Source: Oscillospiraceae bacterium CM (lineage in GTDB: Bacteria; Bacillota; Clostridia; Oscillospirales; Oscillospiraceae). Taken from it: 64,000 bases of DNA. Positions 37,488 through 39,886 of this stretch are shown here, one piece after another (position 1 is the stretch's first letter; every line of letters begins with the position of its first letter). Both the position numbers and the translations under genes were made by a program. The stretch is from contig CP072107.1 of NCBI GenBank assembly GCA_022870705.1, forward strand, positions 1,796,501 through 1,860,500, read 5' to 3'. The notes below the pieces were generated by a model. It searched no databases. It saw only the letters and a program-made list of their open reading frames with translations, and was not told the DNA's origin.

Positions 37488-38336
37488 GTGACCGCGGGAA
37501 CAATAAATTGGCTCTCTTCAAACCTCTCCGGCGTTGTCGCCTTGACAGCCTTTCTCGTGACAGCCGTCGGCTACTACCTGTCATTAAGCGAGTACTATAA
37601 CAAAAAAGCCTATTGGGACTATTTTTATATCCATGACCTGTGCCGGACAAGCATGCGCTCCGGCTTTCACCCGGAATATTTGTCGCTTGCCGCCGTCATC
37701 CTGCTGGTCGCCAGCTTGATTATCTGCTACTTATTTCAAAACAAAGCTTTTTTTATCATCGATTGGCCTGTCAAGCTCCTGATTCTGTGTATCGCCATTT
37801 TTGCCGTCGTGTCTCTCGCGCTGTTCTTGATTCTTTGGAAATTCCTGCTGCCAGAAGTCAATGAGCAGGGAATCTGGAAAAAGCGCCAATTTCTCAAGCA
37901 TATTGGGCTTCAGGCTTTATTCATTGCCATCGGGATAACAGGCGCGTGCCTTGTTTTTCTCCTTGCCATTGTCTTTTTCATGCTTCAAGGCTTCAATTTG
38001 GTTTCAATCGTTCTCATAGCCTTCGTCCTTGTCGCTTTGCAATTTGCCAATTACTCTTATAATCAGCGGCAGCTTGCCCACAAAAAGTGGCTGTTTATAA
38101 CGACATACCAGAATTCAACCTTTGCCGTGATAGAAACAAACAGCGACTTTATGCAGCTTGTGGCGTGCCACATCACCGGCGACCGGAAGCAATGCGCCGA
38201 GCTTGTGCTTGATGACGTTGTATTGTTGAAGACAAGGACAATCGCGTTTGAGAAAATGTATTTTGCCCAAATAAACCGCCGGATCAATCATAAAACCCGC
38301 CGCCGGAAAAGAAGCATCTTTAAAATTTTTGAATAA
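37488..38336 (+). CDS. Integral membrane protein, unknown function
   Basis: A 282-aa protein with about five transmembrane helices (near residues 12-32, 65-85, 94-118, 145-170 and 172-190) and a basic C-terminal domain of about 85 residues ending KTRRRKRSIFKIFE. GAGGTGAT precedes a GTG start. It lies 20 bp after the VanY-type gene and may be cotranscribed with it. I do not recognise a family. Confidence 0.7.
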   Translation: MTAGTINWLSSNLSGVVALTAFLVTAVGYYLSLSEYYNKKAYWDYFYIHDLCRTSMRSGFHPEYLSLAAVILLVASLIICYLFQNKAFFIIDWPVKLLILCIAIFAVVSLALFLILWKFLLPEVNEQGIWKKRQFLKHIGLQALFIAIGITGACLVFLLAIVFFMLQGFNLVSIVLIAFVLVALQFANYSYNQRQLAHKKWLFITTYQNSTFAVIETNSDFMQLVACHITGDRKQCAELVLDDVVLLKTRTIAFEKMYFAQINRRINHKTRRRKRSIFKIFE

Positions 38337-38372
38337 CAGAAATTTTCAGAAAGTAATAAATCACCAAAGAAA

Positions 38373-38408
38373 AGAGAGCTTGCAATCACTTGCAAGCTCT
38401 CTTTTTTG
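38373..38408. terminator. Terminator next to the truncated tRNA-Lys copy
   Basis: AAGAGAGCTTGCAA and TTGCAAGCTCTCTT form a stem with a TCAC loop and T-runs on both sides. It abuts the duplicated tRNA-Lys 3' end exactly where the tRNA cluster terminator abuts the intact tRNA-Lys. Confidence 0.85.
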
Positions 38409-38456
38409 GTGACCCGTCCGCGACTCGAACACGGGACACCCTGCTTAAAAGGCAGT
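38402..38456 (-). pseudogene. Truncated tRNA-Lys copy (attachment-site remnant)
   Basis: 55 bp identical, except for one base, to 39805-39859. It covers tRNA-Lys nucleotides 28-76 (anticodon arm to CCA) plus a T-run, while the 5' half of the tRNA is absent. This is the pattern left by site-specific integration into a tRNA gene. Confidence 0.9.
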
Positions 38457-38569
38457 ATTTTATTATATCAGACTACCTCAATTTTACACCTGTTTTTCTA
38501 TGGTCAAACTGCAGCCGAATTATTTTAAGTATTTCGTGTATGTCGGTGAATTCCGTTCCATATCAGCCT

Positions 38570-39484
38570 TTACCGCTTTTTTGTTGTCATTTGTGTGGAA
38601 ACTAGGTTATTTGTAGTATCTAGTTTTTCAGTACTGTTTAATAAGTCTGTCCAATTTGTAGGAAATCCAATATGGTTAAGTTTAATAACACCATCGTACT
38701 CATTTATCAGAGCCTCAAGTGCCGTTAATGTCTCACTATTCCATCGTTGTTTATCTGGAAATAGGTATTTTATTATGCAAATATAATCAAATACTGTATT
38801 GCTCAGTTGGCGGTATCTTTCTGGCGTTTTTGGAAATTTTGAAAATCTCCGGTAATATAACCGCCCATAATGCGCGCAAATATTTCGTATGTCCGTACAG
38901 CAAGCCAGCCAGCTCTGTAATACATCTGCATTAACGGCAAAATCATTTTCTGCAACTGATCGACGGTCTACACCCTTTAAATCAGCAAAGAAAAATGATA
39001 ACATCCCAAATGTAAACAATTCAACTGCAACCCATATCGGGAATTGACCCTCATAGTTCTCGAGGTGGTGCTTAACGTATAGGACATTTCTATTATTACT
39101 AATTTCAGCCTTAATCTTATTTTCAAAAAGTTCATGTTTGTGTTTCTGGTTGAAGTTGTTGCTGTCTTTATAGCCCAACGCGCCATATTCATGCGAGTGA
39201 TAGTACGCTAATCTTGTCCTAAGTTTTATTTCAATCTCCTCTATAGCAGTTAAAAGGATTCGTCGCAATTTCCGGTCAAATTCGTAAATGTTATATATTC
39301 GTTCAATAGTGACGTCAAAATATGTATCATCAGCTTTTTTGAAGGGTAAAAAATATGCGGTAAGTCTATAGTAGTTGACATTTTGAAGAATTTTTTGGCA
39401 TTCCCCATCATCAGAAATCTGGCACCCACGAGCTCTTAATTTTATTATTTGCTGCTCGTATGTTGTCGGTTGCTTTACCTCCAC
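38570..39484 (-). CDS. Abi_2 family (AbiD/AbiF-like) abortive infection protein
   Basis: A 304-aa protein matching the Abi_2 family: N-terminal 'TTYEQQIIKLRARGCQI', the tyrosine-rich 'VNYYRLTAYFLPF', 'IEEIEIKLRTRLAYYHS' and the hallmark 'DIRNICAHYGRLYYRRF'. The R-N-x-x-A-H motif is HEPN-like and suggests RNase activity. Lactococcal AbiD/AbiF proteins abort phage infection. It is a GTG start preceded by GAGAGG, AT-rich compared with neighbours, and the sole gene of the island. Confidence 0.9.
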   Translation of the reverse strand: MEVKQPTTYEQQIIKLRARGCQISDDGECQKILQNVNYYRLTAYFLPFKKADDTYFDVTIERIYNIYEFDRKLRRILLTAIEEIEIKLRTRLAYYHSHEYGALGYKDSNNFNQKHKHELFENKIKAEISNNRNVLYVKHHLENYEGQFPIWVAVELFTFGMLSFFFADLKGVDRRSVAENDFAVNADVLQSWLACCTDIRNICAHYGRLYYRRFSKFPKTPERYRQLSNTVFDYICIIKYLFPDKQRWNSETLTALEALINEYDGVIKLNHIGFPTNWTDLLNSTEKLDTTNNLVSTQMTTKKR

Positions 39485-39515
39485 AAAATTTCCTCTCCGT
39501 CTATAAAAAATAAAT

Positions 39516-39562
39516 GCCCCCCCGGGGACACTTCACACATTTCTGTGGAGAGGTGCGGGGGG
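39516..39562. repeat. Imperfect hairpin upstream of the Abi gene
   Basis: CCCCCCC (39517-39523) can pair with GGGGGG (39557-39562), and ACTTCACAC with GTGGAGAGGT inside it. It lies 30 bp before the Abi start in the 5' leader and may be a regulatory or terminator-like structure. Confidence 0.5.
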
Positions 39563-39773
39563 TCCTGTTATCTTTATTATACACAGGATGAAAGGATTTG
39601 CAACACAATGCAATTTTGCACTGTGAATTTGGGCACTATATATTGTGCTTTAGCGAAAATTTTTGTCAATTATTTAAAAATTTTTTTAAATATGCAAAAA
39701 AACCACTGGACATTACGGGATTCAAGTTGCTGCCGATGGTTGCTAAACGTTACTAACAAATCTATATAAAAAC

Positions 39774-39810
39774 AAAAAGTCCTGTAGTTCTTGTAACTAC
39801 AGGACTTTTT
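39774..39810 (-). terminator. Terminator of the tRNA cluster
   Basis: AAAAAGTCCTGTAGTT pairs with AACTACAGGACTTTTT around a short loop, and lies directly 3' of tRNA-Lys on the minus strand. Confidence 0.88.
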
Positions 39811-39886
39811 TGGTGACCCGTCCGCGACTCGAACGCGGGACACCCTGCTTAAAAGGCAGGTGCTCTGCCGACTGAGCTAACGGGTC
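39811..39886 (-). tRNA. tRNA-Lys (TTT), integration target
   Basis: A 76-nt tRNA with GACCCGT/ACGGGTC acceptor stem, anticodon stem CCTGC/GCAGG around CTTTTAA and encoded CCA. Its 3' 49 nt are duplicated at 38408-38456. Confidence 0.96.

What the first reader, a model, noticed from the sequence alone, without database searches (positions are those of the whole stretch)
38402..39859. 1.35-kb tRNA-Lys island with only an Abi_2 defence gene
The 3' 49 nt of tRNA-Lys plus flanking bases are duplicated (54 of 55 bp identical) on either side of an AT-rich segment whose only gene is Abi_2. The intact tRNA lies on one side and the truncated copy on the other, as after site-specific integration starting in the anticodon arm. 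It is an unusually minimal defence island without its own recombinase.
Basis: partly seen in the sequence, partly recalled or inferred. Interest (0 to 1): 0.66.

Follow-up and report, generated by a model that had tools for sequence, protein, structure and literature searches.

The report
Prophage scar keeping an RNA-controlled toxin
The small tRNA-bounded island is most likely what is left of a bacterial virus that once sat in the lysine tRNA gene; its one surviving gene is an RNA-cutting defence toxin, and next to it lies the small RNA that should keep the toxin silent, an RNA whose relatives also occur alone in phage genomes.

Summary
A 55-bp direct repeat (54/55 identical) brackets a 1,349-bp, 36% GC segment. 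One copy lies in intact tRNA-Lys; the other begins at tRNA position 28, in the anticodon arm.

The reading needs two changes. (1) The intact-tRNA end is the attachment-site arm of a known kind of prophage integrase. TTTGTTAGTAACGTTTAGCAACC (39738-39760) matches the arm repeats of tRNA-Lys-targeting phages. One of these (L185) carries a complete attP: integrase, tRNA-Lys 3' fragment starting at the same base, a similar terminator, and arms. Another (L093) sits at the same tRNA array. The island is therefore best explained as a prophage that lost its integrase and body.
(2) Abi_2 is not alone. Upstream of this AbiD/AbiF-type HEPN RNase (RNICAH motif; homolog of PDB 8VZ6) lies a promoter-driven structured RNA (39511-39569). 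The RNA is conserved and covarying at other AbiF genes, so the cargo is a toxin-antitoxin pair. Rfam's abiF model misses this RNA subclass.

By-product: the same RNA occurs without any AbiF in several phages and prophages, often just upstream of the terminase genes. These may be RNA decoys against AbiF (untested).

No exact empty site was found. A trans-mobilised mini-element is not excluded.

The parts
39811..39886 (-). intact tRNA-Lys(TTT), the integration target, first of the array Lys-Gln-His-Arg-Gly
   Evidence: ARAGORN, Rfam tRNA 67.6 bits; same array in congeners G002, G004, G005 and in prophage contig L093
39805..39859 (-). right copy of the 55-bp att core, inside the intact tRNA-Lys
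   Evidence: direct repeat 54/55; phage attP in L185 carries a tRNA-Lys fragment starting at the same CTGCCTTTTAAGCAGG
38401..38455 (-). left copy of the att core: truncated tRNA-Lys (positions 28-76)
   Evidence: not called as a tRNA
39774..39810 (-). terminator behind intact tRNA-Lys, CCTGTAG type, probably element-borne
   Evidence: 16-bp perfect hairpin; similar terminator in the L185 attP and behind tRNA-Lys in G002, G004, G027
38370..38405 (-). different terminator hairpin behind the truncated copy
   Evidence: 16-bp perfect hairpin
39738..39760 (-). arm-type direct repeats TTTGTTAGTAACGTTTAGCAACC of a phage tyrosine-integrase family
   Evidence: one site in the window, none in 100 shuffles; same repeats beside integrase and tRNA-Lys in L093/L182, L184, L185 and G034
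39576..39603 (-). sigma-70 promoter, TTGCAA-16-TATAAT, 6 nt before the RNA
   Evidence: sequence; TATAAT-like box at the same place upstream of relatives' RNAs
39511..39569 (-). AbiFr-like antitoxin RNA: 6-bp outer helix, 3' bulge, 4-bp inner helix, CUCUC loop; U-run follows (terminator/attenuator)
   Evidence: CM R1 64.3 bits, but the window sequence is in R1's training set; covariation; fold; not matched by Rfam abiF RF03085
38570..39484 (-). AbiD/AbiF-type toxin, 304 aa, GTG start, SD GGAGAGG; HEPN motif RNICAH at residues 200-205
   Evidence: Pfam PF07751 and PADLOC AbiD; PDB 8VZ6 AbiF E 5e-31; motif position
38456..38569 (.). 114-bp non-coding stretch between toxin stop and truncated tRNA; no arm repeat, no integrase trace
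39604..39737 (.). non-coding stretch between promoter and arm repeat; inferred main deletion junction (DNA similarity to the G005 prophage ends near 39610)
   Evidence: match covers query 311-1271, window 38650-39610; inference

Best explanation
A temperate phage (or phage-like element) with a tRNA-Lys-specific tyrosine integrase integrated in the anticodon arm of tRNA-Lys. It restored the tRNA from its own attP and left the original 3' half as the truncated copy. Deletion then removed the integrase and nearly everything else. What remained is the attachment arm beside the tRNA, the truncated copy, and a cargo pair at the far end: an AbiF-type HEPN RNase and the structured RNA transcribed just before it. 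By homology the RNA binds and silences the toxin, and its terminator-like fold limits read-through into the gene. When the balance is upset, for instance by phage infection, free dimeric toxin would cut RNA and stop growth. Shown here: repeat, att layout, missing integrase, toxin family and motif, RNA conservation with covariation. Inferred: the deletion history, toxin silencing by this RNA, the trigger, and present activity.
For: Att: the arm repeat at 39738-39760 has no chance match in shuffles. A scan of 2.9 million viral contigs with this arm pattern gave 4 sites; 3 adjoin both a family integrase and a tRNA-Lys gene or fragment. L185 holds a complete attP whose tRNA-Lys fragment starts at the same base, with terminator and arms aligned to the window. 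L093's integrase lies next to tRNA-Lys of the same array, with its arm about 59 nt from the tRNA end (51 nt in the window). G034 has intact and truncated tRNA-Lys with integrase and arms. Loss: no integrase remnant in the island, no integrase of this family in the genome. Cargo: the congener G005 homolog (67% aa) lies beside an endolysin gene in a prophage, with the same RNA upstream. Codon-position differences between the two genes are 27/15/58%, pointing to purifying selection. RNA: outer helix 100% paired in 17 sequences, 15 compensatory cells, covariation score 0.268 against 0.100 shuffled, 0/500 shuffles as high. Toxin; a C. difficile relative (the phiC2 homolog is about 40% identical) is toxic and silenced by its upstream RNA (PMC12373285).
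Against: No intact prophage or exact empty site at this chromosomal position was found. The second arm expected near the truncated copy is missing. The terminator on the intact-tRNA side resembles those of relatives, so it does not by itself mark element DNA. The window RNA has C where all 20 other aligned sequences have A in the 3' bulge (A46), which could weaken binding. The RNA alone folds only moderately better than shuffles (z -1.7; -3.4 with flanks). The R1 hit in the window is circular because the window sequence helped build R1. No expression or toxicity data exist for this locus.
Confidence: 0.66

Rival explanations
1. Compact non-autonomous element: AbiF plus its RNA between minimal att ends, moved by a helper prophage's integrase acting in trans.
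For: Very compact; nearly identical att copies; intact toxin gene and RNA; no phage debris; integrase family of the right specificity exists in relatives.
Against: Only one arm is present. No helper integrase of this family in the genome. None of the 14 other AbiF loci examined in their surroundings lies in such a mini-island.
Confidence: 0.2
2. No integration: an old partial tRNA-Lys duplication or rearrangement placed the Abi gene between two copies.
For: The left flank differs from that of congeners and its 282-aa gene is not found in the genus; no exact empty site.
Against: The repeat starts where phage attP starts, and the integrase arm repeats sit at the expected distance; GC contrast.
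Confidence: 0.06
3. Abi_2 here is a plain single-gene abortive-infection protein and the upstream hairpin is only a transcription attenuator.
For: The hairpin is followed by a U-run in front of the gene; older descriptions treat AbiD/AbiF as single genes.
Against: Conserved loop and bulge bases beyond helix needs, covariation, copies without any AbiF gene, and experimental RNA antitoxin in AbiF of C. difficile (PMC12373285).
Confidence: 0.08

Closest known systems
AbiF-Cd / RCd22 of Clostridioides difficile prophages (phi027, phiC2, phiCD2301)
   Same: Abi_2 HEPN protein (about 40% identical to the phiC2 homolog; RNxCAH motif), promoter-driven RNA directly upstream with a terminator before the gene, prophage lysis-region location
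   Different: One RNA motif instead of two; the RNA subclass is not matched by RF03085, which does match phiC2 (37.6 bits); here in a 1.35-kb prophage scar
PbAbiF-AbiFr (PDB 8VZ6), relative of the ancestor of Cas13
   Same: Same protein family by sequence (E 5e-31); RNA bound per monomer in the known complex (PMC12737573)
   Different: Structure and complex of the window pair not determined
Abi_2 genes next to prophage lysis modules (G005 prophage; lactococcal t712 prophage, PMC12373285)
   Same: Cargo gene beside endolysin near the prophage end
   Different: In the window the rest of the prophage is gone
Integrase-less genomic islets and prophage scars at tRNA genes
   Same: Truncated tRNA copy on one side, intact tRNA on the other, no recombinase
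   Different: Only cargo is a toxin with its RNA; arm site still recognisable

Membership tests
AbiD/AbiF (Abi_2) toxin | Full-length Abi_2/AbiD profile match | tested here: met
   PF07751 179.9 bits over positions 1-183/184; PADLOC AbiD 342 bits
AbiD/AbiF (Abi_2) toxin | HEPN RxxxxH catalytic motif | tested here: met
   RNICAH at 200-205; R202/H207 RNQCAH in AbiF-Cd (PMC12373285)
AbiD/AbiF (Abi_2) toxin | Toxic RNase activity | not testable with these tools
   needs expression
AbiF-AbiFr RNA toxin-antitoxin | Structured RNA directly upstream, own promoter, conserved with the gene | tested here: met
AbiF-AbiFr RNA toxin-antitoxin | Match to Rfam abiF RF03085 | tested here: not met
   no match at E<=10, positive control phiC2 matches; same layout of helices and 3' bulge but different sequence, hence called AbiFr-like
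AbiF-AbiFr RNA toxin-antitoxin | RNA neutralises toxin | not testable with these tools
   known for C. difficile (PMC12373285) and Prevotellaceae (PMC12737573) only
tRNA-integrated prophage remnant | tRNA 3' part duplicated at the ends | tested here: met
   54/55
tRNA-integrated prophage remnant | Att arm sites of a matching integrase family | tested here: met
   met on the right end; absent on the left end
tRNA-integrated prophage remnant | Exact empty site in a relative | tested here: inconclusive
   G002, G004, G005 have single copies but other downstream genes
autonomous integrative element | Own integrase | tested here: not met

The most novel reading that the evidence does not exclude
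The RNA beside this gene belongs to an AbiFr subclass that Rfam misses. Phages repeatedly carry it without any AbiF, typically just upstream of the terminase small-subunit gene, as an RNA decoy that disarms AbiF during infection: an RNA anti-abortive-infection factor comparable to RNA anti-CRISPRs. The window pair would be the toxin side of that contest.
Probability: 0.4. Interest if true: 0.78.

Novelty: new variant of a known kind. Interest (0 to 1): 0.56.

Why it matters
It turns an apparent one-gene defence island into a toxin with its RNA antitoxin left at a prophage scar, and shows where it came from. The conserved RNA gives a search model for an AbiFr subclass outside Rfam. Its copies without AbiF in phages give a directly testable idea of how phages could escape AbiF, the protein family from which Cas13 is thought to derive.

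Tried and rejected
Rfam at gathering and permissive thresholds on the island: only tRNAs and chance hits. Integrase remnants inside the island: none. Helper integrase in the same genome: only 25-41% identical relatives. Island DNA in annotated phages: no match. Other AbiF loci in tRNA-flanked mini-islands: none of 14 non-window loci examined. Polarity test by terminators: the intact-side terminator resembles those of relatives, which at first suggested that this side is native; the L185 attP carrying a similar terminator removed that argument. Left-flank genes in congeners: the 282-aa gene is absent from the genus and the CotF-like gene next to tRNA-Lys in G002/G004 is absent from this genome, so no clean empty site. 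Close relatives of the protein in viral contigs by peptide patterns: none; the RNA pattern was far more productive. Structure prediction was not run because the sequence match to 8VZ6 was already clear.

Full report
Observation. The 55-bp repeat is at 38401-38455 and 39805-39859, 54/55 identical, 1,404 bp apart. The right copy lies in intact tRNA-Lys(TTT) 39811-39886(-); the left copy is not a tRNA. On the tRNA strand the repeat starts at position 28, inside the 5' strand of the anticodon stem. Each copy has its own terminator hairpin, so this is not a tandem duplication with flanks. The enclosed 1,349 bp is 36% GC against 49-55% around it. The window is part of a complete 2.19-Mb genome.

What integrated. 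On the tRNA strand, the intact tRNA is followed by a terminator and then TTTGTTAGTAACGTTTAGCAACC (39738-39760), which occurs once in the window and in none of 100 shuffles. In genome G034 of the same family, an element at tRNA-Lys has a 364-aa tyrosine integrase followed by TTTGTTAGTAAC and a truncated tRNA-Lys. Intact tRNA-Lys, a terminator and TTGTTAGTAACCCGGAAGTAAC lie on another contig. Viral contigs with 70-81% identical integrases show the layout integrase, TTTGTTAGTAAC, tRNA 3' fragment with terminator, TTGTTAGTAAC. A scan of all viral contigs with the window-type double arm gave four sites. Three adjoin a family integrase plus a tRNA-Lys gene or fragment (L182/L093, L184, L185). The fourth, on the same contig as L093, lies behind an endolysin gene. 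L185 has a complete attP whose tRNA-Lys fragment begins CTGCCTTTTAAGCAGG, the same first base as in the window. A CCCTGTA-type terminator and TTTGTTAGTAACGTGTTAGTAACC follow. L093 sits at the same array Lys-Gln-His-Arg-Gly, with its integrase beside tRNA-Lys. The right end of the island is therefore the attachment arm of this integrase family.

What is missing. No integrase trace is in the island and no integrase of this family is in the genome. The stretch between toxin stop and truncated tRNA has no arm. DNA similarity to the G005 prophage covers gene, RNA and promoter and stops near 39610. The simplest history is deletion of the prophage between the right arm and the RNA promoter, with loss of the left arm. 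Single tRNA-Lys copies with eroded arm-like repeats in G002 and G005 suggest that the site has been used more than once. This history is inference; no intermediate was found.

Cargo. The gene at 38570-39484(-) is Abi_2/AbiD and matches the solved Abi family protein 8VZ6 at E 5e-31. It has the HEPN motif RNICAH. The congener G005 homolog (67% aa) lies beside an endolysin gene in a prophage, as in phiC2 and as reported for other AbiF genes (PMC12373285). Between the two genes, differences per codon position are 27%, 15% and 58%, which indicates purifying selection.

The RNA. Directly upstream of AbiF genes in the window, L033, L037, L095, L096, L125, L126, L129, L138, L139, L143 and L144 runs AACAGRACnnnnCGCACCUCU...GUGUCCC, generally behind a TATAAT-like box. 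In 17 aligned sequences the 6-bp outer helix is paired in every cell, with 15 compensatory cells and a covariation score of 0.268 against 0.100 in shuffles. Sliding the partners destroys this. A covariance model found further members it was not built from, such as the RNA upstream of a plasmid AbiF (L127, 32 bits); its hits on its own training sequences, the window included, are not independent. Rfam's abiF model finds the phiC2 RNA (37.6 bits) but nothing here. Both fold as outer helix, inner helix with a CUCU-bearing loop, and 3' bulge. In the window one bulge base differs from all 20 other aligned members.

Copies without a toxin. The RNA pattern was found in 15 viral contigs; three have an AbiF match behind it (L129, partial; L138, L139) and one has an AbiF-like start ending early (L134). 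The rest, counting near-identical contigs once, are at least eight lineages without AbiF in the DNA held. In L130, L132, L136, L137 and L147 the next packaging gene is a terminase small subunit. In MT835513 (L147/L181) the whole 43.9-kb record has the RNA and no AbiF. In 394 genomes of the order the model gave 14 copies in 12 genomes. G088 and G103 carry copies with a consensus promoter, near terminase small-subunit and HNH genes (shown for L149 and L150), and had no AbiF in the protein search. G410 keeps the RNA before a collapsed abi gene. A lytic cyanophage with an abiF RNA has been reported (PMC9964418), and RNA anti-CRISPRs show that such decoys exist (PMC10651486). The decoy function is a hypothesis.

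How it most likely works. By homology, one promoter makes the RNA and, by read-through, the toxin mRNA; the RNA binds the toxin dimer and blocks its RNase. Loss of that balance frees the toxin and stops growth. The toxin-antitoxin nature could also explain why this piece outlasted the prophage, but that is not shown.

Verdict. Real, and more informative than described: a prophage scar in tRNA-Lys with an AbiF toxin and an AbiFr-like RNA. The scar is ordinary; the RNA subclass and its toxin-free phage copies are the interesting part.

Noticed in passing
L130:776, L132:553, L136:5250(-), L137:369, MT835513 (L181):17039: Antitoxin-like RNA without any AbiF gene, followed by the terminase small-subunit gene, in several phage lineages; two of them have a tRNA between RNA and terminase (L130 tRNA-Ile, L147 tRNA-Gly).
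   Followed up: partly
L149, L150, L160 (G088, G103): The same RNA with a consensus sigma-70 promoter, in genomes with no AbiF found; prophage terminase small-subunit and HNH genes lie nearby in L149 and L150.
   Followed up: partly
L155 (G410), L158 (G311), L134: RNA intact but the abi gene behind it collapsed or stopped early, suggesting the RNA outlives the toxin.
   Followed up: partly
L131:3340-3441: Two tandem copies of the RNA in one viral contig, behind a recombinase-like gene.
   Followed up: no
G002 (L034) and G005 (L032), just downstream of tRNA-Lys: Eroded integrase arm repeats behind single-copy tRNA-Lys, possibly scars of earlier prophages at the same site.
   Followed up: partly
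window 37488-38336: 282-aa membrane-like protein gene next to the truncated tRNA with no relative in the genus and no Pfam match.
   Followed up: no
window 39511-39569: The RNA has C at the conserved A of the 3' bulge (A46), unlike the other 20 aligned sequences; the congener prophage copy keeps A.
   Followed up: no
L126 (MT836843): 8.5-kb record with 124-bp end repeats (probably circular) carrying AbiF, the RNA and an integrase-like gene, perhaps a small satellite-like carrier.
   Followed up: no
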